Part shown: piece by piece, positions 5,260 through 22,566 of the stretch
Position numbering within the stretch: position 1 is the stretch's first letter
Layout of the letters: every line of letters starts with the position of its first letter
Source of the DNA: a virus
Length of the DNA: 28,358 bases
Virus record (IMG/VR): IMGVR_UViG_3300038701_001082
Location: 1-28,358 of that record
Direction: 5' to 3' (one strand)
Translations under genes and position numbers: made by a program
The notes under the pieces: model-generated
Told to the model about the DNA's origin: nothing
What the model saw: only the letters and a program-made list of their open reading frames with translations
Database searches by the model: none

Positions 5260-5432
5260 CAGCGCCTGCCCGTTTCAAGCAATCGGATATAAAGCGCGCA
5301 GCAGCCGGTGTAGTTGCTGCGGGGCTTTCGATTGCGCGGGTGGAGATAGACTCAAGCGGTAAAATCGTCATTATTCCCGGCAAACCAACCGTAGCGCCAA
5401 GGAATGATAACGAGTGGGAAGACCTCGAATGA
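5256..5432 (+). CDS. 58-aa protein translationally coupled to the integrase
   Basis: A 58-residue protein whose GTG overlaps the previous stop and whose TGA overlaps the integrase ATG. The core reads DIKRAAAGVVAAGLSIARVEID followed by SGKIVIIPGKP. I recognise this as a small protein that very often sits directly upstream of integrases in alphaproteobacterial prophages; its role is not established to my knowledge. A short helix followed by two strands would fit a small DNA-binding fold, so a recombination directionality role is plausible, but this is inference. Confidence 0.72.
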   Translation: MTAPARFKQSDIKRAAAGVVAAGLSIARVEIDSSGKIVIIPGKPTVAPRNDNEWEDLE

Positions 5433-6463
5433 GCAAGACGCTGCCAAAATATGCCAGCGCGTTTGTCGATAATCGCGGCAAGCAGCGCGTGCGACTGCGG
5501 CGGACAGGATGGAAAACGCACTATGTGCAAAGCCCACTTGCAAGCCCTGAATTTACGCAAGAATATCACGATTGGCTTGAGAATGGCCGCGTCGCTGCAG
5601 GGCAGGAAAAGGTTATCCCGCGTAGCTTTGACGATCTGATTGCGCGCTTTTACCAGTCAAACGACTTTGCCGAATTGTCGGAAGTCACCCGCAAAACCTA
5701 CAGGGGCGAACTGGAACGCTTTCGGGCCAAGTATGGGGAGCGCAGCGCAGCAACCATTCAAGCGCGCCACATTGCCAACCTACTTGCACAGATGAGCGAC
5801 ACGCCAAGCGCGGCGAACAACCTGCGCAAACGGCTTGGGCAGTTGTTCAATCTGGCAATCTTTTTGAATTGGCGCGCTGATAATCCTGCCAAATCCGTTC
5901 GGGCACTTAAGACACCGAGCGGCGGCTACAAAACGTGGCAGGAGCCTCAGATTGCCATATACGAGGCCGCGCACCCTATCGGCACCAAGGCCCGCCTTTT
6001 GTTTGACTTGGCGCTCTACACGGCTCAGCGGCGCTCAGACCTAGCAGTCATGGGGCCGCAGCATATCGAAAAGGGGCGCATTCGTGTGCGTCAGATTAAA
6101 ACGTCCAAGACGCTGTTAATCCCGATCCATCCGAATTTGGCCAAAAGCATTGCCGCAACCGAGACGGGACACTTTGCTTTTGTGGCGACCATGCGCGGCA
6201 CGGCATACACCAAGGAAAGCTTGGGCAATTGGTTCGGGGACCAATGCGCGGAATTGGACCTGCATGGATATAGCCTGCATGGATTACGCAAGGCCGCGTC
6301 ACGCCGCATGGCGGAAGTCGGATTGTCCAATCAGCTTATCAAGTCGATCACCGGCCACGTTACGGACTCGGAGGTATCGCGCTACACGCGGGATGCCGAG
6401 CAGCAAGTTATGGCCGATAAGGCAATGGCGCATTTGGCTAGCGCAGGAAAGGCATTTGGCTAG
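5429..6463 (+). CDS. int: Tyrosine-recombinase integrase
   Basis: A 344-residue site-specific recombinase that would insert and excise the phage genome. The N-terminal third holds a basic arm-binding region and a SAM-like core-binding domain (residues about 65-150). The catalytic domain carries TAQRRSDL with the first catalytic Arg near 201, HGLRKAAS with His 284 and Arg 287, TGHVT with His 310, and the nucleophile Tyr 319 in SRYTRDAE. All catalytic residues are present. The chosen ATG overlaps the stop of the upstream 58-aa gene; a GTG five codons earlier is possible. The gene lies far from the repressor, at the end of a run of small early genes. Repeated 10-mers start inside its last codons and continue downstream. 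Confidence 0.95.
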   Translation: MSKTLPKYASAFVDNRGKQRVRLRRTGWKTHYVQSPLASPEFTQEYHDWLENGRVAAGQEKVIPRSFDDLIARFYQSNDFAELSEVTRKTYRGELERFRAKYGERSAATIQARHIANLLAQMSDTPSAANNLRKRLGQLFNLAIFLNWRADNPAKSVRALKTPSGGYKTWQEPQIAIYEAAHPIGTKARLLFDLALYTAQRRSDLAVMGPQHIEKGRIRVRQIKTSKTLLIPIHPNLAKSIAATETGHFAFVATMRGTAYTKESLGNWFGDQCAELDLHGYSLHGLRKAASRRMAEVGLSNQLIKSITGHVTDSEVSRYTRDAEQQVMADKAMAHLASAGKAFG

Positions 6464-9152: not shown

Positions 9153-9491
9153 TCAAAATATCGTGTCCAACGCATTCGCACCCGAAGTCTCAGCTTCTTC
9201 GATTGCATCGTTCAACACCTCTTGTTGTGTCTCAAATTCTTGCGCGCGTTCATCCGCCTTGGCATCGGCCTGCTTTTCAGCGTCCCGCGCCTTTTCCTTC
9301 GCTTCCGCAGCCTTTGCGCGTAAGTCGCTCAGAACCGCCTCACGGCCCGCGTCATAGCCCCTGCCATGCTGCACACAGCCGTTGACGGGAATTGCCGCCA
9401 CAAGCGCGCTGATAACCCACACCTGCCACGGGATAGCCTTAAGCGCGCCGATAGCGTTGCCAGCCCACCGGATTAGGAAAGCTTCAATCAT
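9153..9491 (-). CDS. Candidate inner-membrane spanin (Rz-like)
   Basis: A 112-residue protein with an N-terminal membrane anchor (residues 22-40, VWVISALVAAIPVNG) followed by a long Ala/Glu/Lys coiled coil (about 48-102, with AKAAEAKEKARDAEKQ). One anchor plus a periplasmic coiled coil is the i-spanin layout, and it lies just downstream of the endolysin and holin candidate. The chosen ATG overlaps the stop of a 22-aa micro-gene and has AAAGGGG upstream; the frame also opens 43 codons earlier, but that part only antisenses no gene and reads through the micro-gene and holin end. Confidence 0.76.
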   Translation of the reverse strand: MIEAFLIRWAGNAIGALKAIPWQVWVISALVAAIPVNGCVQHGRGYDAGREAVLSDLRAKAAEAKEKARDAEKQADAKADERAQEFETQQEVLNDAIEEAETSGANALDTIF

Positions 9492-9556
9492 CGAAAAGCC
9501 CCTTTCAAAATGTCTCTGAGAATTGCCAGGACGACGCGGGGATGCAGGCCGTGCAT
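9488..9556 (-). CDS. 22-aa micro-gene between holin candidate and i-spanin
   Basis: The only gap in the central lysis block contains a 22-codon frame joined at both ends by coupling: its ATG shares TAATG with the holin candidate's stop, and its TGA shares ATGA with the spanin start. The peptide starts MHGLHPRVVLAILRD and ends KGAFR, an amphipathic, net-positive helix. It could act on the membrane, or be a coupling leader that carries ribosomes to the spanin gene. No family is recognised; the double coupling is the evidence. Confidence 0.42.
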   Translation of the reverse strand: MHGLHPRVVLAILRDILKGAFR

Positions 9557-9768
9557 TATTCGTCGCCTTGGCGAAGCTTTTCCCACCCTCGAAGGCCATA
9601 AACAGCCGCAACAAAGGCAAGCAAAACGCCGCGCACCGCGCTATCCATGGGAAAGCCGAACCAATCGCAAAAGAACACCCACGCTGTGCCGGGGATGCAC
9701 ACCCACCTCAAAAGCGGACGAGGCAGGCTTTCGTAAAGCTGCCAGACTTTGGATAGGTCGAACGTCAC
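9556..9768 (-). CDS. Small membrane protein, candidate holin
   Basis: A 70-residue protein with two hydrophobic segments (about 20-38, rich in Trp/Phe, and 43-58, GVLLAFVAAVYG), an acidic start and a charged C-terminal tail (RGWEKLRQGDE). Size, two segments and position directly after the endolysin fit a class II holin, which would form the hole that releases or triggers the lysin. Other small membrane proteins in this block (10541-10813, 10798-11115) are alternatives. Its ATG overlaps the endolysin stop. Confidence 0.6.
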   Translation of the reverse strand: MTFDLSKVWQLYESLPRPLLRWVCIPGTAWVFFCDWFGFPMDSAVRGVLLAFVAAVYGLRGWEKLRQGDE

Positions 9769-10544
9769 GCCAACCGCTCCCGCCGCAGCAATTCCGCGAC
9801 CAGCTTGTTGAACTTGCGCCGCCTGTCAGCCAGCCCAATAAGCCCGCCGTTGATGCGCCGCGTCTCGTCCTCGATGCCGGGACTATCCGCAAGGCGGTTA
9901 ATGCCGTTGCGCGTCCAGAACCACGCCGCCGCTGCAACGCTGCCATCGATGCTGTTTTCGATGTAGGATGCCGCTTGCTCGGCGGTCTTGCCGATGGTCT
10001 TGCCGAACTCTGCGTGATTGGCGCGGCCCGTCAACTGGATTGCGCCATTGCCACGAAAGCGCCAGCCATCGCCGCTTTGCGGTGTGCCGTTGCCCATCCG
10101 GTTCGCGTAAACCTCATTGGCAATCGCCACGGGCTTGCGGTGGAGTGCCCGCGCTTTAGCCCGTCCCGCCGCACCGGAAAAGCGCGAAGGCCACACTTGG
10201 CGCAGTCGCTTGGCGCTGTAATTCATATTCTCGCGCCCGCCGACCTTAAACCCGCCTTCGTGGGCAAGCGTGGTGATGAACGCGGCAATGCGGCGGATGG
10301 TGATTATGCCGTGTTCGCGGCACGCCCGCTTGATCGGCTCCACCCAAGACTGCGTGGCATTGGGCGACACAAGCTTGAGCAAGCTTAGGTCAATCGCGCT
10401 AATCGGAAAGCCGTCCGGTGCGACAAATTCGGAGGCAGCGGGCACTTCACCGAACTGCACGCCCTTTATCATGTCGCGCTCGTATTGCGTCTCGACCTCG
10501 CGGCGCAGCTTGAACGCCTTTTGCAGGATGGTTTTGAGTGTCAT
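9765..10544 (-). CDS. Endolysin, glycoside hydrolase family 19
   Basis: A 259-residue muralytic enzyme. Residues from about 60 to the end match GH19 (chitinase/lysozyme-like): AAFITTLAHEGGF with the likely catalytic Glu 96, NMNYSAKRLRQVWPSRF, YANRMGNG, and GWRFRGNGAIQLTGRANH. It would cut the glycan chains of peptidoglycan. About 55 residues before the catalytic part are unusual: helical and charged (LRREVETQYERDM), without a signal peptide, so export would depend on the holin. The extension is not a cell-wall domain that I recognise. The ATG overlaps the preceding stop. Confidence 0.92.
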   Translation of the reverse strand: MTLKTILQKAFKLRREVETQYERDMIKGVQFGEVPAASEFVAPDGFPISAIDLSLLKLVSPNATQSWVEPIKRACREHGIITIRRIAAFITTLAHEGGFKVGGRENMNYSAKRLRQVWPSRFSGAAGRAKARALHRKPVAIANEVYANRMGNGTPQSGDGWRFRGNGAIQLTGRANHAEFGKTIGKTAEQAASYIENSIDGSVAAAAWFWTRNGINRLADSPGIEDETRRINGGLIGLADRRRKFNKLVAELLRRERLA

Positions 10545-10813
10545 TTTTGCTTATCCTGTCTTTCGCGCAAAACCGCTACTTCACGTTCAAGTTCTGCGAC
10601 CTTCAACTGCAAGGTAAGGCAACGGGCGCGCTCTGCACTCAGCTCGTTTTCCAAATGGACGAGGCGCGCTGCTAGTTTATCGTGCATATCTGAATACGCA
10701 TCGAGGCTATCCTTTCGCCTGTTGCGAACGTAACCCAAGACAGCGGCCCCCAAACCGCCGCCAAGAATTAGCGTTGCAATCTGCAAAACCAGATCAATTA
10801 CTTTGATTTCCAT
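10541..10813 (-). CDS. Membrane-anchored coiled-coil protein next to the endolysin
   Basis: A 90-residue protein: an N-terminal membrane segment (about 7-29, with a GGGLGAAVLG motif), a basic patch (RNRRK), then a coiled coil (about 40-88, HLENELSAERARCLTLQ and ELEREVAVLRER). It lies just upstream of the endolysin and overlaps it by 4 nt. The topology suits a holin partner, antiholin or second spanin-like protein. The exact role cannot be told from sequence. Confidence 0.7.
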   Translation of the reverse strand: MEIKVIDLVLQIATLILGGGLGAAVLGYVRNRRKDSLDAYSDMHDKLAARLVHLENELSAERARCLTLQLKVAELEREVAVLRERQDKQK

Positions 10814-11115
10814 TGAACAGCGGCTTTCCCGACTAAAAAGAAGGCTGTCCCTGCACTGACAATAGCCTCTGCAATTGCGGTGATTTGAAGCATAATGATG
10901 CTTGCCCCCAACGCATCAGCGGCGTGATCCATGAAGCACGCAAAAACGAAAACCGCGACAAGCTTAAACGCGGTTGCCCGGTCGTTTTTATTGCGCAAAA
11001 GCGTAAAACGGAACTTGGGAGATACACCGCACCAATAAAGCACGAAGCCGACCACGAAATAGGCCCCGCTGGTGATAAGGTGCATCAAGTCGATGAATGG
11101 GTCGCCGTGGTTCAT
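10798..11115 (-). CDS. Three-segment membrane protein, alternative holin candidate
   Basis: A 105-residue protein with membrane segments near 10-30, 48-65 and 70-98, a basic loop between the first two (RFTLLRNKNDRATAFK) and a short basic tail (QWKSK). Three segments in about 100 residues fit a class I holin. It shares TGATG with the stop of the preceding structural gene and overlaps the following gene by 16 nt. Holin, antiholin or general phage membrane protein are all possible. Confidence 0.68.
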   Translation of the reverse strand: MNHGDPFIDLMHLITSGAYFVVGFVLYWCGVSPKFRFTLLRNKNDRATAFKLVAVFVFACFMDHAADALGASIIMLQITAIAEAIVSAGTAFFLVGKAAVQWKSK

Positions 11116-14382: not shown

Positions 14383-14841
14383 TTATTCCGCGCCCGTTGA
14401 AAGGTTGTTAAATGTAGCGGTTACGTCCGCCGTGTCGCTTTGCCCCGTGTCGTCCGTGATGGTGACGCGAAATACAGCAGAGCGCCCCGTGTTAGGCCCT
14501 AGCGTTGACCGGAAAGCCGTGGTGGCCATTGCGGGGTTTAAAATGCTGGCAGTATCGCCCGAAACAAAAGCCCACGAATATGTGAACGGCCCACGCCCAC
14601 CGATTGGCGCTGCTGTTGTCTGGTTTGTCGTAATGGTTTGGTCGTTTGAGCCGTTACCCGTGCCCGTTACAGTTGTGGGCGATGCCGAAGCACTCAGATC
14701 GGACACAAATTCCGCCACGGTGCGCAGCGACCCGCCATGTTGGACCTTCACCGTGCGAATAGAGCGATTAATGCCCCCATCGCGCACCGTCATGGCCGTG
14801 ATTGTTCGCAGCGTCCCGCTGTCTCTGATTTTGAACGCCAT
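14383..14841 (-). CDS. Structural protein with Ig/PKD-like domain
   Basis: A 152-residue protein. The first 45 residues contain three similar units (IRDSGTLRTI, VRDGGINRSI, VQHGGSLRTV), a short repeat that probably binds a tail partner. The rest looks like a PKD/Ig-like beta sandwich (GPFTYSWAFVSGDTASILNP, then VFRVTITDDTGQSDTADVTATF). Ig-like modules are common on phage surfaces and give weak adhesion. No catalytic role is expected. The ATG shares its position with the upstream gene's stop. Confidence 0.74.
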   Translation of the reverse strand: MAFKIRDSGTLRTITAMTVRDGGINRSIRTVKVQHGGSLRTVAEFVSDLSASASPTTVTGTGNGSNDQTITTNQTTAAPIGGRGPFTYSWAFVSGDTASILNPAMATTAFRSTLGPNTGRSAVFRVTITDDTGQSDTADVTATFNNLSTGAE

Positions 14842-15176
14842 TAGTATTCCAGCAGAATGTCGCCGTTCGCCATTGTTGGCGTGGCTGCACCCGAAGCCTG
14901 CACAAAAACCTTGCCCGAAGCGTTTGAGGCATTGTTGTGATGAATAACCGCCCCGCGTGTGGCGACGGTGGGCTGTCCGGTAAACGCAGGGGAGGCAATG
15001 TCCGCCTTGTCGGAAAGGTCGATTGCATCCAGCGCGTTGGCAAGTTCTTTCCCGTCCGCCATAAGCTGCCGCAAGCCGTTATTGATCGAGGCAGGGTTGG
15101 TCGTGTTTTCGGCAATACTCAGACCTGCCAGCGTGGTGTTGCTTGCAGGCGTGAGGGAATAGCTAGAAAAGCTCAT
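14841..15176 (-). CDS. Small tail/fibre protein
   Basis: A 111-residue protein beginning MSFSSYSLTPASNTTLAGLSI, with a central helix (NNGLRQLMADGKELANALDA) and ASPAFTGQPTVATRGAVIHH, a motif typical of phage fibre proteins. The ASPAFTG-PT element is a common fibre repeat, supporting a structural role. The chosen ATG has AGGAA about 8 nt upstream; a TTG two codons earlier is possible. Its upstream region is also the promoter of an opposing gene, which leaves an unusual gap of about 270 bp in the late operon. Confidence 0.74.
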   Translation of the reverse strand: MSFSSYSLTPASNTTLAGLSIAENTTNPASINNGLRQLMADGKELANALDAIDLSDKADIASPAFTGQPTVATRGAVIHHNNASNASGKVFVQASGAATPTMANGDILLEY

Positions 15177-15205
15177 TGGCAAATTCCTATGCTTTTTGAT
15201 ATGAT
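15176..15205 (+). promoter_or_regulatory. Near-consensus promoter of the opposing gene
   Basis: TTGGCA (15176-15181), an 18 bp spacer and TATGAT (15200-15205) each match the sigma-70 consensus at five of six positions. The start point would fall at about 15212, which is the GTG of the plus-strand gene. The -35 overlaps the start codon of the minus-strand fibre gene, and the spacer covers that gene's ribosome site. Confidence 0.72.
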
Positions 15206-15211
15206 GGGAAG

Positions 15212-15460
15212 GTGAGCGATGAATTACGTGATCTAGAAGCTGAAATTCAGCGTTCTCGCTTCGAGATGTCCGAAGTCGAAAAGTTTCTAATTCAACGCCA
15301 CGAAGCTAAAATTGCAGAATTGGAAAAACCCAAAAGCAAGCCAAGGCTCTGGCTCACCCTAGCCAAGGAGGCTGGATTGCTAGGGACGTTCTTCCTTGGA
15401 CTTTATCAAATATCGCAAATCTTCGCGTGGTCGTTCGCGCAGGTGTTATTGGCCCTGTAG
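15212..15460 (+). CDS. Counter-oriented moron: coiled-coil protein with C-terminal membrane anchor
   Basis: An 82-residue protein on the opposite strand to the whole late operon. A charged helix or coiled coil (residues 1-38, ELRDLEAEIQRSRFEM) is followed by a basic segment (KPKSKPRLW) and one hydrophobic span (about 55-80, LLGTFFLGLYQISQIFAWSF). This gives a tail-anchored topology with the coil in the cytoplasm. A near-consensus promoter would start RNA at the GTG, so the message is probably leaderless; the only Shine-Dalgarno-like bases abut the start. It overlaps the end of the opposing ejection-protein gene by 15 nt. Possible roles are superinfection exclusion or defence, by analogy with other morons. 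No family is recognised. Confidence 0.75.
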   Translation: MSDELRDLEAEIQRSRFEMSEVEKFLIQRHEAKIAELEKPKSKPRLWLTLAKEAGLLGTFFLGLYQISQIFAWSFAQVLLAL

Positions 15461-17986
15461 AGCGATCTGCCGCGCACCAGAGCCGAACAAGCCAGAACGA
15501 GCGCCCACCGCCCGACCTACGCGCTGTGCGGTAGTGGGGCGCTCAAACAGGACTGTATCAAGCGCCCTTTGTCCGCCACGAGTGCCGAGAAGGGCCAAAG
15601 CACCCGCCAAAGCGCCAAGTGTCGCCGTATTGCTTACATCACCCGTTGCGTAATTCTCGCCAAGGCCAGCCACACCAAGACCCGCAGAGCCAAGCGCCGT
15701 TGCCGCAAGCGCCCTATCCGTTGTCCCGCTGTTTGGCACAGTCGAAGGCAGAACCTCCTGGGCATTGTCTGCCAACTCGGCAAACGGCCTTTGCCCACCA
15801 AACTTGCGTTGGTTTTTAATCCCCGCGCGCTGCAATTGACTTGGCGTAAAAACGAAGTTTTCACCTGATTGGCTGCCGCCCGCAGCGCGGTTTGCAGCGT
15901 CGTCAAGCACGCGTGAAGCGCGATAGGTTTGGTTCGCGTTGTTCAGGGCTTCAACCCCTTCTTCGCCACCAGAACGCCTTACCGCACCTTCCAGCGCGTC
16001 CATAACCATCGTGGATGTGTTGCGCAGCGTGTTTTGCGAATTAGGCATAACACCCGCTGGATTGTTACGCAGGTTGCGAAGTGCGCTCAAAGCGTCCTGA
16101 AATTGCGCGCCAGTGATCTGCCCCGCATTTGCTGGCACTTGCACCGCATCGCGCAACGTATCGCCAAGCTGTCGGCGGTTTTGCTCGCTCATAGTGCGCC
16201 CCGCCTGCCTTACGGGCGCAAGGTCTTTTAGAAACTGGCGATCAAGAGGTGCTGGATTGATACCAATGGCACGGTCGTATTCCGCCCCCACCGCGTCCCC
16301 AAGTTCGTCCAAACCCTGCAAACCCGTGTTAGTAGGTGTGACACCTACAGGCTCACCCGCCTGCCTAAACGCTTCACGGTTGAAGTCTTGGAATGCGTCA
16401 AGTTGCCGCGCCCTTACCTGATCACCAACAATCGGCAGGCTTTGGGCCAGATCTTCCGCCCGCGCCGCGCCGCCACCGAGTGAGCGGCCTACACTGAGGC
16501 GAACGCCAGCATCGCGCAACGCCTGAGCCGGGGCTGTGCGCTGCAATCCGCCAATGCCAGCGCCAAGCACCTTCCCAAGCCCCTGACCCGCCAGTGATCC
16601 GCCTACGCCAAGCCCTACGCCCATGCCAACGCTATCACCGCTGTTGGCGCTGTAAACGCCGCCATAGGTCGCATCCGCAGCAACATTGCGCCCTACTTGT
16701 GCACGGGTGCCACCTTTAAGCAGGTTGGGAGCCAAGCGTGACGCAGCGCGCCCGCCAATGCCGCCGACAATGCCCGTTCCGGTGATTGCACCGCCAATTT
16801 CGCCGCCGAGACTTGAAAGCGGGTAAGCGTCCGAAAGAGCCGCCGCCTCATCGGGCAACATCGCATTGATGCCACCAAGGCTTGCAGCATTGGCAAATCC
16901 GGTAGCAGCAGCGCCAACGGGATTGCTAATAAGGTTGTTTTGCAGGGTTTCCGTGCGGCTTAGTGTGCGCTCGGTTGGCTGAATACCTGTCGGGATGGTT
17001 TTGCCACCAGCTTCAAGATATTCGTTGACCGACGTTGCCCAATTTACGTTGGCATTTGGGTCGCTTTGTTCGCCGTATTTCTGATCGAGTTCAGCGCGGG
17101 CCTGTGCATAGGCTTGCGGGTCAATCCGTCCGCCGTTTTCACCAGCAAGGCGCGCAACCATGCGGTCGTGTTCGCTGGCCATTTCTTCGGAAACAGGGAT
17201 AAATTCGGTCGTAGCACCAAAGCCCGCCGCTTTTTGTTGCGGGTTTGCGCCGCCAGTGGTGCGGACAACATCAAGCGCGCTCGTTTGCTCTTGCTTTGGA
17301 ATTGGCGTGATATTCCCGTATTCGTCAGGAACGCCGCCCAAAATTGCTACTGAACGGGCCTTAGCCTGTTCGCGCAAGTCTTTAAGCCGTTGGATAGCAT
17401 CCTCAATCGTGCCATCCTTGTCCGTTGACGATGGAATATATGGCCCGATATTCAACCGTGCCTCACCTTCACTGTTCAATTGCCCACCAGTGAAGCCAAG
17501 CGCCTGCCCCACAATACCACGCGCTGCGTTAGCCGCCCGATCAAATCGCTCATTTGCCTCAGTGGGGAGATAATCCAGCGCGCCTGCTACGCCGTTTGTG
17601 CTGCCGGGGCCTTCGCGATAAAGCCTCTCAAGGTCTGCAATGATCCCATCAAGAGACAACGCAGACTGATAGCCTGTAATAGCGTTGGCGCGCTCGGTTT
17701 CGCTTTGAGTGCCTGATCTCTGCATTTCCGCACGAATACGGTCTGCCTCTGCACGCGCTTTCTCAGCGTCAGCTTGGGCCTTGGCAATCTCGGCAGGAGC
17801 CGTGGCGCGGTCGATCTCGTTTTGCGTCTGCACGCGCTGCAAGTCCGCTTCCGCCTTGGGAGCTTCATATTGCGCAGCAGGGTCTTGTGGGCCAAGTGGA
17901 GTGCCTTGGTTCTCATACCCGACAACCGTGGCAGTGCCATCGCCATTGTCTTGATAAATCACGCCATCGCGGCTGAAAGTTTGCAT
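15446..17986 (-). CDS. Large internal virion / DNA-ejection protein
   Basis: An 846-residue protein, the largest in the window. Order: a short N-terminal beta part (FSRDGVIYQDNGDGTATVVGY), a long Ala/Glu/Arg helix (about 45-105), a helical middle, a glycine-rich hydrophobic region (about 385-500, with GGEIGGAITGTGIVGGIGG) that may insert into membrane, and an Arg/Ala-rich helical end. Length, low complexity and position after the tail-stabilisation genes fit the ejection proteins that podoviruses carry in the capsid and extrude into the cell envelope. I see no transglycosylase motif. It is the third of three adjacent ejection-type genes. Confidence 0.75.
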   Translation of the reverse strand: MQTFSRDGVIYQDNGDGTATVVGYENQGTPLGPQDPAAQYEAPKAEADLQRVQTQNEIDRATAPAEIAKAQADAEKARAEADRIRAEMQRSGTQSETERANAITGYQSALSLDGIIADLERLYREGPGSTNGVAGALDYLPTEANERFDRAANAARGIVGQALGFTGGQLNSEGEARLNIGPYIPSSTDKDGTIEDAIQRLKDLREQAKARSVAILGGVPDEYGNITPIPKQEQTSALDVVRTTGGANPQQKAAGFGATTEFIPVSEEMASEHDRMVARLAGENGGRIDPQAYAQARAELDQKYGEQSDPNANVNWATSVNEYLEAGGKTIPTGIQPTERTLSRTETLQNNLISNPVGAAATGFANAASLGGINAMLPDEAAALSDAYPLSSLGGEIGGAITGTGIVGGIGGRAASRLAPNLLKGGTRAQVGRNVAADATYGGVYSANSGDSVGMGVGLGVGGSLAGQGLGKVLGAGIGGLQRTAPAQALRDAGVRLSVGRSLGGGAARAEDLAQSLPIVGDQVRARQLDAFQDFNREAFRQAGEPVGVTPTNTGLQGLDELGDAVGAEYDRAIGINPAPLDRQFLKDLAPVRQAGRTMSEQNRRQLGDTLRDAVQVPANAGQITGAQFQDALSALRNLRNNPAGVMPNSQNTLRNTSTMVMDALEGAVRRSGGEEGVEALNNANQTYRASRVLDDAANRAAGGSQSGENFVFTPSQLQRAGIKNQRKFGGQRPFAELADNAQEVLPSTVPNSGTTDRALAATALGSAGLGVAGLGENYATGDVSNTATLGALAGALALLGTRGGQRALDTVLFERPTTAQRVGRAVGARSGLFGSGARQIALQGQ

Positions 17987-17987
17987 A

Positions 17988-18542
17988 TCAGTTACTCACC
18001 CTTACGCCGCTGCTTTGGAGCCATGCCTGCGTCCGTTGTTTGCCCATTTGGTCAACCATGCCTTGATATTGCTGGCGTGTGATCGTTTGACCTTGCGTCG
18101 ATTGACCGGAAGGAGCGCCGCCAATATCAGCCATAGAAACCTTGGAGCCAACGGCAGGGCGGCGAGGAACCGCAACAGGGCCAGCGCCCGTTGAAACCAC
18201 AAACGGGTTATATTGATCGTATGTGGCGCGCTCTTGTGGGGTCGCGCTTTGATACCACTCAAAACTTCCCGGCTTTGGTGGCTGGCCTGCTGCAAGTTTG
18301 GCCTTGTAATCAGCCAGCCCGTATTGCGCCTGCGTGCGCTGTGCCAACAATTCTGCCTGTTGGCGCTGCTGCTGCGCCAAAACTTCGCGCTGGTATTGCA
18401 TTTGTTGCCGCTGCGCTTGCATCGGGCCGTAAATCGCAGCCCCGCCTGAATGACGTGATACGGCATCACCAACATGGCCAAGGACGTTCAACGCCACATC
18501 ACCAAAGCTAGGCTTGCCGCCCTTCTTTCCGAAAAGTGCCAT
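17988..18542 (-). CDS. Internal virion protein, Gln-rich
   Basis: A 184-residue protein opening MALFGKKGGKPSFGDVAL, with a Gln/Ala-rich helix in the first half (MQAQRQQMQYQREVLAQQQ) and Pro/Gly-rich loops in the second. The basic start and the long Gln helix resemble small podoviral ejection proteins. It lies between two other probable ejection proteins and shares TAATG with the stop of the upstream gene. The role is inferred mainly from position and composition. Confidence 0.66.
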   Translation of the reverse strand: MALFGKKGGKPSFGDVALNVLGHVGDAVSRHSGGAAIYGPMQAQRQQMQYQREVLAQQQRQQAELLAQRTQAQYGLADYKAKLAAGQPPKPGSFEWYQSATPQERATYDQYNPFVVSTGAGPVAVPRRPAVGSKVSMADIGGAPSGQSTQGQTITRQQYQGMVDQMGKQRTQAWLQSSGVRVSN

Positions 18543-19333
18543 TAGAAAATCCCCGGATTGTTATTCATCGCAGCCTGCACACTTGGTGTAAGTGCCTCGG
18601 CCTGCGCGCCAGTTATACCAAATCCGCTTGCGAATTGCCCCGCAAGGCCGCCACCGCTGCCAAGGCCGCCCGTAAGCGCGCTTGTAAGACCACCCGTCGC
18701 AGCGCCGAGGATTGACCCAAGAAGTCCGCCAGACTGTTCTGTCTCACTGTTGACCGTTTGGTATTGACCAAGAAGTCCGCCAGTGCCAGCAGAACGTGCC
18801 AGAGCCGCTTGCAGAGGCATCATAGCGCCTTGGCTGCCCGTCCGAAGCGCAGCATCGAGCGGGATAAGTTCAGCCGCCGAAAGCCCCGGAGCCATACCCG
18901 CAGCGCGCTCTTGACGCGCTTGCTGATTGTTGAAGTCGCTATAGCGCAACCCAAGTTCGTTCTGCGCCAAGGCATCGGCAATAATGTCCACATAAGACGA
19001 GCCGCCCGTAAGCCCCCGCGTTCCAAGCTGTGCCTGTAAGTCATTGCGCACGCTGTTATTGGTCTGTGCGACCAAATCATCCAAGTAGGGGTTAGACGCA
19101 GGGTCACTGGCAAGCGCGTCGGTCACGTAGCCTTGTGCGGCTTGAATAAGCGGGTCACCTTCACGAAACCGCCTGAAAAGCTCGTCACTTGCCTGTGTGG
19201 CGTTGTCTTGGAATTGGTCGAACAAACCTGTTGAGGCATTATACGCTGCATCAACGTCGCGGCCTGCACGCTCGATCTGAGCGCCATATACAGGACGGTT
19301 GACCTGCTCGGTCTTAGTTTTCTTTTTGCCCAT
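18542..19333 (-). CDS. Internal virion / ejection protein
   Basis: A 263-residue protein: a very basic start (MGKKKTKTEQVNRPVYG), a helical body with FDQFQDNATQASDELFRRF and NNSVRNDLQAQLGTRGL, then a glycine/alanine-rich tail (LLGSILGAATGGLTSALTGG) that could be membrane-active. This layout, with the GTRGLTGGS motif after a helical domain, is common in ejection proteins of podoviruses. It overlaps the previous gene by 20 nt and abuts the next by TAATG. The role is inferred. Confidence 0.7.
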   Translation of the reverse strand: MGKKKTKTEQVNRPVYGAQIERAGRDVDAAYNASTGLFDQFQDNATQASDELFRRFREGDPLIQAAQGYVTDALASDPASNPYLDDLVAQTNNSVRNDLQAQLGTRGLTGGSSYVDIIADALAQNELGLRYSDFNNQQARQERAAGMAPGLSAAELIPLDAALRTGSQGAMMPLQAALARSAGTGGLLGQYQTVNSETEQSGGLLGSILGAATGGLTSALTGGLGSGGGLAGQFASGFGITGAQAEALTPSVQAAMNNNPGIF

Positions 19334-20595: not shown

Positions 20596-21163
20596 GGTTG
20601 CGATGCTCGATGTTGATTAGAAGCGACTTGTTAGAAAGAACTCCCGGCCCATCGCTTTGAGCCATGATCTTTCCGCCATTCGCCTCCCATGTGTCAGCGT
20701 TGAAGCAGATAAAATTGTAAAAGCGGGATACTGCCACACCTGCCCCGCCTAGAATGTCGTAGTGATCGGGAAACAGCGGCGGAAAACCACCGCCAATATC
20801 AATCCAAAGGTCCAGATAACTTGCCGTTCCGTCGTCTGGTGTGAACGTAAACATGAATTGGCAATCCCGGCTGTCGCCATTCACACCCGCGATTGTGTTT
20901 GTCGCCGTGTCCCAAATGCTCGCCATGTCCGCTGGCAGTCGGCTGCGATCTGTGCCGGGGCCACCGTCTGCAATCGTCACCTGCGTTGCCGTTGCCGCTG
21001 CAATTGCCTGTGTTGCCGCCGCCGTGTCGTCTACAAACTCCCAACCGGACGAGTTCTCTACATTCTCACGCGCCCACGCCCCATCACGCGCCGCCTTATT
21101 GCCAACCTGAGCGACCAAACGCGGCCAATCGTCACGCCTGTAGGTTTCGGGAATAGGCTTCAT
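20588..21163 (-). CDS. Fibre-associated structural protein
   Basis: A 191-residue protein starting MKPIPETYRRDDWPRLVAQVGN. A threonine/alanine-rich helix (DDTAAATQAIAAATATQV) is followed by a beta-rich domain (CQFMFTFTPDDGTASYLDLWI, FYNFICFNADTWEANGG). It resembles head- or tail-fibre-type proteins of short-tailed phages, in which a helical attachment part carries a jelly-roll. It sits between the stabilisation protein and the collagen-like fibre, overlapping each by a few nt, so the two may make one appendage. Confidence 0.68.
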   Translation of the reverse strand: MKPIPETYRRDDWPRLVAQVGNKAARDGAWARENVENSSGWEFVDDTAAATQAIAAATATQVTIADGGPGTDRSRLPADMASIWDTATNTIAGVNGDSRDCQFMFTFTPDDGTASYLDLWIDIGGGFPPLFPDHYDILGGAGVAVSRFYNFICFNADTWEANGGKIMAQSDGPGVLSNKSLLINIEHRNRD

Positions 21164-22566
21164 CGCACTGCCCCCGCATTGGCTTCAAACTCAAAACCCT
21201 GCACATAAGACCAATCGCTATCTGCGATCTGCATGGTGCACTCGAAATATCGCCCATTGGCTTGCAGTGCCATGCGCCCGCTTGGCTGCATCACAGAAGC
21301 CGTTTTAAGCGTCCCCGTGTCACCTCGGCGCTGTTGCGCGTTCAACTTGACGGTCACGCCGCCTGTTGCGTCTGTATCGGGCCACACAGCCCTTACGCGG
21401 GTCTTGCGGCCTTTTGATGGTTCAACCTCACCCGTCACAAAGCGCGCTGTCATGTTTGCGCCCGCAAAATTGCCAACTTCGCCGTTCTGCACCGCATACA
21501 ACCTTGGCGCACCGCCACTATAGCGCGGGTCGTCAAAGCTAATGGTCGCCGCATCCAAATCGGTTACGGTTGCCGCCAGCGTCTCAAGGTCTGTGCTGTT
21601 TTCAAACCCTGCAAAAATACCATCAAAGGGCAATTCAAGAACAAATGCGCGGTCCAGTGCCCAGTTGTAGCCCCAGATTTGCCCTTCAAGCCCCGGGATG
21701 CCCCAAAACACAATTGAGCGTTCAGGGTCAATTGCCGAATAAAGCCGCTCGAACCCGTCGCTGCCCAACGCCTCGGTAAATGAGCGGTCAAACTTCTCAT
21801 TGCCAACAAGGCGAATGTCCTGCCCGCTTTCCAGCGCCGCAAACCCCCTGTCAGACAGATAAAAGATAGTGCGACCCGCCGCCGCAATGGATGCCTTGGA
21901 CGCGCAACCGAAATTCTCGCTTATCGGGTCAAAATTGAACGGTGCATCCGCATCACCCGTCAAATCCATCCGAACAAGGCGATTGCGCTGCAAAATAACG
22001 CCGTATTCACCACCGACAACGCCCATCACCTCGCCGCCAGCAAGCATAATCTGCTCACCCGCTTGGTTAGTGCCGTTTGTCCATCCTGTGCTGTCGCCAA
22101 ATGCGCTCCAGCGCACCTTAAGCTGCTCACCATTAGGCTGCGCCAAGACAACGTGATCGCCTACAACCGCCACATCAATCGCAGTCGGTGCACCGGAAAG
22201 CGCCGCCGCCGTTTGCGTGCTCAAATCCACTTCTTGCGTGGTCGTGCCGTTAACCGCAATTACGGAATTGCCAAACTGCGTAAAGCGCCAGCGCCCGCTT
22301 ACTGAAAGACCCGTCAATATGCCCGTCCAAGCGCCACCAGAGAGCCGTGAGAGCGTCGATGCTGTGCCTACAAGCAGGGTTGCCGTGCCATTGCCCGATT
22401 TGAAGCTGGCAGCGCCTAAAAACGTGTCTGGCAGCGGGCTTGAAATAGACGAAAAGCTAGGCGCGGCCCTGTAACCGTTCTCAGCCGGGAACACGTTGAC
22501 GCACTCGACCAGAATGTCGCCAGTGGGTAGCTTGTCAGGAACAAACGCCCCAAGGTTATACTGCAT
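21160..22566 (-). CDS. Packaged-DNA stabilisation / tail-hub protein
   Basis: A 468-residue beta-propeller-like protein. The start NLGAFVPDKLPTGDILVECVNVFP and the blade-like repeats (VVGDHVVLAQPNGEQLKVRWSAFG, MGVVGGEYGVILQRNRLVRM, IFYLSDRGFAALESGQDI) are typical of the family of podoviral DNA-stabilisation or nozzle proteins that includes P22 gp10. Such proteins plug the portal after packaging and form the base of the short tail. The length is close to that usual for the family. It follows the adaptor gene, with TGATG coupling, as expected. Confidence 0.84.
   Translation of the reverse strand: MQYNLGAFVPDKLPTGDILVECVNVFPAENGYRAAPSFSSISSPLPDTFLGAASFKSGNGTATLLVGTASTLSRLSGGAWTGILTGLSVSGRWRFTQFGNSVIAVNGTTTQEVDLSTQTAAALSGAPTAIDVAVVGDHVVLAQPNGEQLKVRWSAFGDSTGWTNGTNQAGEQIMLAGGEVMGVVGGEYGVILQRNRLVRMDLTGDADAPFNFDPISENFGCASKASIAAAGRTIFYLSDRGFAALESGQDIRLVGNEKFDRSFTEALGSDGFERLYSAIDPERSIVFWGIPGLEGQIWGYNWALDRAFVLELPFDGIFAGFENSTDLETLAATVTDLDAATISFDDPRYSGGAPRLYAVQNGEVGNFAGANMTARFVTGEVEPSKGRKTRVRAVWPDTDATGGVTVKLNAQQRRGDTGTLKTASVMQPSGRMALQANGRYFECTMQIADSDWSYVQGFEFEANAGAVR

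What the first reader, a model, noticed from the sequence alone, without database searches (positions are those of the whole stretch)
15176..15460. A leaderless, promoter-equipped moron pointing against the late operon
A single plus-strand gene interrupts about 21 kb of minus-strand late genes. It has its own near-consensus promoter (5/6 and 5/6, 18 bp spacing) whose start would be the GTG itself. The promoter sits on top of the ribosome site and start of the opposing fibre gene, so the two transcripts are antisense to each other. The product is a cytoplasmic coiled coil with a C-terminal membrane anchor. Expression from a silent prophage would be expected, as for morons that block other phages or change the host envelope.
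Basis: partly seen in the sequence, partly recalled or inferred. Interest (0 to 1): 0.7.

Follow-up and report, generated by a model that had tools for sequence, protein, structure and literature searches.

The report
Leaderless membrane-protein gene in exclusion-like slot
A tiny membrane-protein gene reads backwards between the phage's DNA-injection gene and its tail-fibre gene; dozens of related phages carry very different small membrane-protein genes at exactly the same spot, all apparently transcribed from their own start codon, so it looks like a dedicated place for genes that could stop other phages injecting their DNA.

Summary
An 82-codon plus-strand ORF (GTG 15212 to TAG 15460) fills the gap between a minus-strand DNA-ejection gene and a fibre gene. 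Its promoter is TTGGCA-18-TGaTATGAT, and exactly 6 nt separate the -10 from the GTG. Alone, that promoter is no better than chance over 19 kb (9 sites found, 8.8 expected); comparison decides the matter. Three homologues (33-42% identical), one in a Pelagerythrobacter prophage, sit in the identical antisense slot with the same spacing. Across 39 non-redundant related loci the slot shows a -10 box 6 nt before a start codon (z = 9.1; 7.1 without the largest clade). pN/pS of about 0.3 in the antisense frame shows that real proteins are encoded. They fall into about 20 groups without detectable similarity, nearly all small membrane proteins. So this is not a one-off insertion but a conserved slot with variable content, absent from a few relatives. 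Position and orientation match P22 sieA (between ejection gene 16 and tailspike gene 9, opposite strand), without sequence similarity. Best explanation: an early- or prophage-expressed inner-membrane protein that excludes superinfecting phages at DNA entry. Architecture shown; function inferred.

The parts
15176..15181 (+). -35 hexamer TTGGCA
15197..15205 (+). extended -10 TGaTATGAT; 18 bp from the -35
15206..15211 (+). 6-nt discriminator; predicted transcription start is the first base of the GTG (leaderless)
   Evidence: the 6-nt spacing is enriched across relatives, z = 9.1 and 7.1
15212..15460 (+). 82-aa slot gene, GTG start, SRF family (SRFExxxVExFLxxRHxAKI + C-terminal TM)
   Evidence: pN/pS 0.32 in this frame
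15215..15325 (+). codons 2-38: predicted cytoplasmic helical hairpin, the conserved part
   Evidence: AlphaFold2 model, mean pLDDT 73.6; alignment A3
15374..15457 (+). codons 55-82: hydrophobic C-terminal helix, predicted membrane anchor
   Evidence: hydropathy; helix 43-81 in the model
14841..15176 (-). N-terminal fibre-like gene (111 aa); its start codon and AGGA (15185-15188) lie under the antisense promoter
   Evidence: conserved in relatives
15446..17986 (-). DNA-ejection protein homologue (846 aa); its last 15 nt overlap the slot gene
   Evidence: 25% over 32% to the annotated DNA ejection protein of phage C72C1; the L115 orthologue hits phrog_26400 DNA ejection protein, 3.7e-16
14383..14841 (-). 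PKD-like gene after the fibre gene (conserved synteny)
21160..22566 (-). phage stabilization (gp10-like) protein used as the anchor for finding relatives
   Evidence: phrog_3287; hits annotated 'phage stabilization protein'
5414..6463 (+). tyrosine integrase: the phage is temperate

Best explanation
The gene is the window's version of a conserved antisense slot in podoviruses with P22-like gene order that infect Alphaproteobacteria (the named hosts seen here are Sphingomonadales). SHOWN by sequence: a host-type extended -10 promoter 6 nt before the start codon, a protein under purifying selection, a predicted membrane anchor with a conserved hydrophilic hairpin, and a position back-to-back with the fibre gene and tail-to-tail with the DNA-ejection gene. 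INFERRED: host RNA polymerase makes a leaderless mRNA in the lysogen, or right after DNA entry; ribosomes translate it; the protein sits in the inner membrane and blocks the ejection-protein conduit of related superinfecting phages, as P22 SieA does from the same position. Close linkage to the ejection gene would keep excluder and target travelling together, and the diversity of slot proteins would reflect an exclusion and escape race.
For: Homologues in L115/L186, L147 and L184 at the same slot with the same 6-nt spacing. The -10-to-start distance peaks at 6 nt over 39 non-redundant loci (z 9.1), and over 28 after removal of the Sphingomonas-phage clade (z 7.1). pN/pS is 0.31-0.32 in the antisense frame of two unrelated slot families. 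About 20 protein groups, mostly with a predicted TM. P22 sieA is on the opposite strand directly after ejection gene 16, before tailspike gene 9; [quoted passage not shown] L106 carries an RHH gene plus a 2-TM gene in the slot, recalling P22 immI (mnt/arc and sieA). Contigs of Pelagerythrobacter, Sphingopyxis and a Sphingomonas MAG (180-851 kb, so integrated) carry a slot gene. Leaderless transcripts are regular in Zymomonas mobilis, of the same order from my own knowledge (119 of 2,675 TSS-gene pairs; PMC7566282).
Against: No sequence or fold similarity to SieA or any known exclusion protein. 17 slot-bearing long contigs lack a detectable integrase, so prophage expression cannot be assumed for all; early lytic expression would be needed there. 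P22 sieA has a leader, these do not. Some slot products are very short (26-38 aa) or look periplasmic (L157), so one mechanism may not fit all. No expression or phenotype data exist.
Confidence: 0.5

Rival explanations
1. The slot holds lysogenic-conversion genes of mixed function: small membrane proteins that alter host envelope, transport or stress behaviour rather than excluding phages.
For: Protein types are very diverse, including periplasmic-looking and Cys-rich products (L157, L154, L168). None tested matches a defence family.
Against: The slot sits strictly next to the ejection gene, nearly all products are tiny membrane proteins, and most types follow the ejection-gene tree (26 state changes where 21 is the minimum for the 22 states scored).
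Confidence: 0.22
2. The slot gene acts in the lytic cycle of its own phage: a small membrane protein for lysis timing (holin/antiholin-like) or host takeover, made early from a host promoter.
For: Present in long contigs without a detectable integrase; holin-sized single-TM proteins with a basic tail.
Against: The window has a separate lysis block with endolysin 9765-10544, spanin-like 9153-9620 and TM genes 10541-11115. The slot gene is opposite to late transcription and absent from some relatives (L124).
Confidence: 0.15
3. The conserved part is the promoter: its antisense RNA or colliding polymerase silences the ejection/fibre genes in the lysogen, and the ORF is secondary.
For: The promoter covers the fibre ribosome site and the transcript runs against the ejection gene; in 10 relatives a sense terminator lies 12-19 nt before the fibre gene.
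Against: Purifying selection on the encoded proteins and the fixed 6-nt distance to a start codon point to translation. Silencing may still be a side effect.
Confidence: 0.1
4. Chance ORF and chance promoter in a spacer.
For: The promoter count in the window equals the shuffled expectation; an 82-codon frame is not long.
Against: Homologues at the same place, pN/pS 0.32, and z 7-9 for the spacing.
Confidence: 0.03

Closest known systems
P22 sieA (SieA superinfection exclusion), Lederbergvirus
   Same: Opposite strand, directly after the last ejection gene and before the tailspike/fibre gene; small membrane protein; sequence-diverse types at one position; the P22 immI region also holds RHH repressors (arc, mnt), as L106 holds an RHH gene.
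   Different: SieA is 164 aa with several TM segments and an annotated promoter about 30 nt upstream (leadered); these are 26-117 aa, mostly 1-2 TM, leaderless, and the window's family is not detectably homologous.
Morons / lysogenic-conversion genes (own promoter, within the late region)
   Same: Own host-type promoter, late-region position, absent from some relatives.
   Different: A moron is usually a sporadic insertion; here position and promoter geometry are conserved across most relatives and only the protein changes.
Small single-protein exclusion factors (HK97 gp15, Sie2009, Ltp; named in PMC10883804)
   Same: Small membrane-associated products thought to block DNA injection.
   Different: Different phage types and genome positions; no sequence match found here in Pfam, PHROG or PADLOC.
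Leaderless prophage genes such as lambda cI from PRM (own knowledge)
   Same: Leaderless expression of a phage gene in the lysogen.
   Different: cI is a repressor; here many unrelated membrane proteins share one leaderless layout.

Membership tests
P22 SieA family | sequence similarity to SieA, incl. FxRYPxEAxxFNK motif | tested here: not met
   hhalign of A3 against P22 SieA: probability 0.1; no such motif in the window protein. SieA types B and C were not compared.
P22 SieA family | gene antisense between ejection gene and tailspike/fibre gene | tested here: met
   window; P22
P22 SieA family | inner-membrane location | tested here: inconclusive
   predicted C-terminal TM only
P22 SieA family | blocks DNA injection by related phages | not testable with these tools
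   needs plating and DNA-entry tests
Moron / lysogenic-conversion gene | own promoter independent of the late operon | tested here: met
   (sequence evidence only)
Moron / lysogenic-conversion gene | discrete element, present in some and absent in other relatives | tested here: inconclusive
   absent in L124, L028, L055 (11, 1 and 11 nt gaps), but present with varied content in most relatives
Moron / lysogenic-conversion gene | expressed in the lysogen | not testable with these tools
   no RNA data at hand
Leaderless gene | transcription starts at (or within 5 nt of) the start codon | tested here: inconclusive
   -10 box 6 nt upstream, enriched mainly at that distance (a weaker peak at 8 nt probably comes from overlapping TA-rich boxes) in relatives; no 5'-end data
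Holin / lysis protein | member of the lysis block or match to a holin family | tested here: not met
   no Pfam or PHROG match; lysis genes lie at 9-11 kb

The most novel reading that the evidence does not exclude
A dedicated, leaderless, hypervariable exclusion slot welded to the ejection gene exists across a broad group of podoviruses: about 20 different small membrane proteins have been recruited behind one conserved promoter geometry to block the ejection conduit, making P22 sieA one instance of a general arrangement.
Probability: 0.4. Interest if true: 0.78.

Novelty: new variant of a known kind. Interest (0 to 1): 0.62.

Why it matters
[quoted passage not shown] A slot with about 20 different small proteins beside one ejection-protein family would make that testable: clone each, and test it against phages with matching and non-matching ejection proteins. 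Some candidates are only 26-40 aa. It also shows how gene finders can miss a conserved class: short, antisense, leaderless genes in late operons.

Tried and rejected
Pfam, PHROG and PADLOC scans of the ORF: nothing credible; CENP-F leucine zipper at 0.014 is a coiled-coil artefact. tblastn in phages: one weak Arthrobacter hit, E 0.7. Viral-contig scans with the ORF or the ejection protein alone found nothing; the gp10-like and capsid proteins served as anchors instead. Foldseek against PDB and BFVD: no match. 396 genomes of the host order with the 4-row profile: only the known prophage plus a weak hit inside a 427-aa frame, taken as chance. Integrase as a marker for slot presence: not a clean split. 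HTH_3 as a lysogeny marker: uninformative. My first terminator script missed G-U stems and was redone. A terminator-like stem at 15333-15360 (minus) in the window folds little better than shuffles (z -1.0). No paper describing leaderless phage exclusion genes was found in the held library.

Full report
What is in the window. The window is a 28,358-base IMG/VR virus record: portal, capsid, gp10-like stabilization protein, ejection and fibre genes on the minus strand, lysis genes at 9-11 kb, and a tyrosine integrase at 5414-6463. The ORF 15212-15460 lies on the plus strand between the 846-aa ejection homologue (ends 15446) and the fibre gene (starts 15176). The promoter is TTGGCA-18-TATGAT with a TG, and six bases lie between the -10 and the GTG. 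With the usual numbering (-10 hexamer at -12 to -7) the first transcribed base is the G of GTG. The scan finds as many promoter-like sites in 9-28 kb as shuffled sequence does (9 against 8.8), so the window alone could not settle the matter.

Finding relatives. The ORF and the ejection protein found no relatives by themselves. The gp10-like protein and the capsid protein did, including contigs from Pelagerythrobacter marinus H32, Sphingopyxis bauzanensis DSM 22271 and a Sphingomonas MAG. Ejection and fibre genes were mapped in all loci with iterated HMMs. In relatives the ejection-to-fibre gap is mostly about 90-390 nt.

Homologues of the window gene. L115:16277-16546 (42% over 71 aa, pairwise E 2e-12), L147:15672-16019 (50% over 40 aa, 5e-12) and L184:6223-6495 are homologous, share SxFxxxxVExxLxxRHxAKIxxL followed by a hydrophobic C-terminus, and lie in the same slot on the same strand. 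L186 appears to be the same protein as L115. All four have the -10 box 6 nt before the start codon (TATGAT, TATGGT, TATTTT, TATGTA). A profile search of 396 genomes of the order found only the known prophage and one chance-like hit, so the family seems confined to this slot.

The slot in general. Reading the antisense strand of the gap in 45 non-redundant loci shows TG-n-TAtnnT, six bases, then ATG or GTG, again and again. Tested without choosing starts by hand, the best -10 score as a function of distance to any start codon peaks at 6 nt: mean 4.72 against 3.45 in dinucleotide shuffles, z 9.1 over 39 loci; the next, 8 nt (z 6.2), probably comes from overlapping TA-rich boxes. Without the large Sphingomonas-phage clade it is still z 7.1 over 28 loci. 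Related loci are not independent, so the z values overstate certainty, but the peak is specific. The table was built by picking the best start at 5-8 nt and is descriptive only. L097, L103, L106, L153 and L160, whose fibre gene was not recognised next to the ejection gene, also carry such ORFs (read by eye).

Coding evidence. In the Sphingomonas-phage clade (M-x-G-I-I-L-G-I-x-L-K-G-x-x-F-E) pN/pS is 0.31 in the antisense frame and 0.58-1.63 in the five others; in the window's family it is 0.32 against 0.53-1.83. These are proteins under purifying selection.

Diversity. BLASTP clustering of slot products gives one large group (single-TM or two-TM, K-[GA] in the first helix), the window's SRF group of four, small groups (two-TM, RYxAWK...PDL, Cys-rich, ERI with an N-terminal helix and C-terminal TM) and about 15 singletons. 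Short singletons may be unrecognised relatives of the large group, so 'about 20 groups' is an upper-side count. On the ejection-protein tree (quick method) the SRF members fall in one clade of 8 rows together with K-[GA] members and a slot-less phage (L124), so content is mostly inherited with the ejection gene and now and then swapped or lost.

How it most likely works. P22 sieA lies on the minus strand right after ejection gene 16 and before tailspike gene 9, and all examined SieA types keep that position although they are only about 25% identical (PMC10883804). [quoted passage not shown] escape mutants change gp16 and gp20. The window gene has the same place, orientation, neighbours and predicted location, and the neighbour is an ejection-protein homologue (L115 orthologue to phrog_26400, 3.7e-16). 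I therefore favour exclusion at DNA entry. It is an analogy of position and build, not homology: profile comparison with SieA gives nothing, and the AlphaFold2 model (mean pLDDT 73.6, pTM 0.31, four sequences) has no fold match.

Limits. No expression data. Integrases were found in 12 of 36 long records tested, all 12 judged slot-bearing (L141's slot gene is uncertain); 17 slot-bearing ones had none, and no resolvase was found in the 18 records tested for it. For those, early lytic expression or incomplete contigs must be assumed. P22 sieA has a leader; the leaderless layout is a feature of this group. Leaderless transcripts are regular in Zymomonas mobilis (PMC7566282), so hosts of this order can translate them.

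Noticed in passing
L102, L107, L120, L150, L162, L163, L165, L170, L184, L186: 12-19 nt before the fibre start: Ten loci have a sense-strand intrinsic terminator (stem of 8-10 pairs plus T-run) between the antisense promoter and the fibre gene, so the fibre gene may need read-through, antitermination or its own promoter; the window lacks it.
   Followed up: partly
L106, about 18150-18600: The slot holds a leaderless 48-aa ribbon-helix-helix gene (RHH_1, 20.4 bits, cut-off 20.5) followed by a two-TM gene, like a miniature P22 immI region (arc/mnt plus sieA).
   Followed up: partly
L160, antisense of the region after the ejection gene: A 26-aa slot ORF (MNLFFIMLAKAFIIAFIKSLGLVFGK) would be among the smallest candidate exclusion proteins.
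   Followed up: no
L124, 16803-16815: A relative (59% in the gp10-like protein) has only 11 nt between ejection and fibre genes: no slot gene, and no integrase or resolvase found.
   Followed up: partly
L097 and L103, downstream of the ejection gene: A second antisense ORF (ending ...RFIRQFLR(S/A)HGS...AVSGFAC) precedes the small membrane gene, so some slots hold more than one gene.
   Followed up: no
window 10541-10813 and 10798-11115: Two small TM genes next to the endolysin (one TM plus coiled coil; several TM) are the likely holin or spanin-like parts of the lysis block.
   Followed up: no
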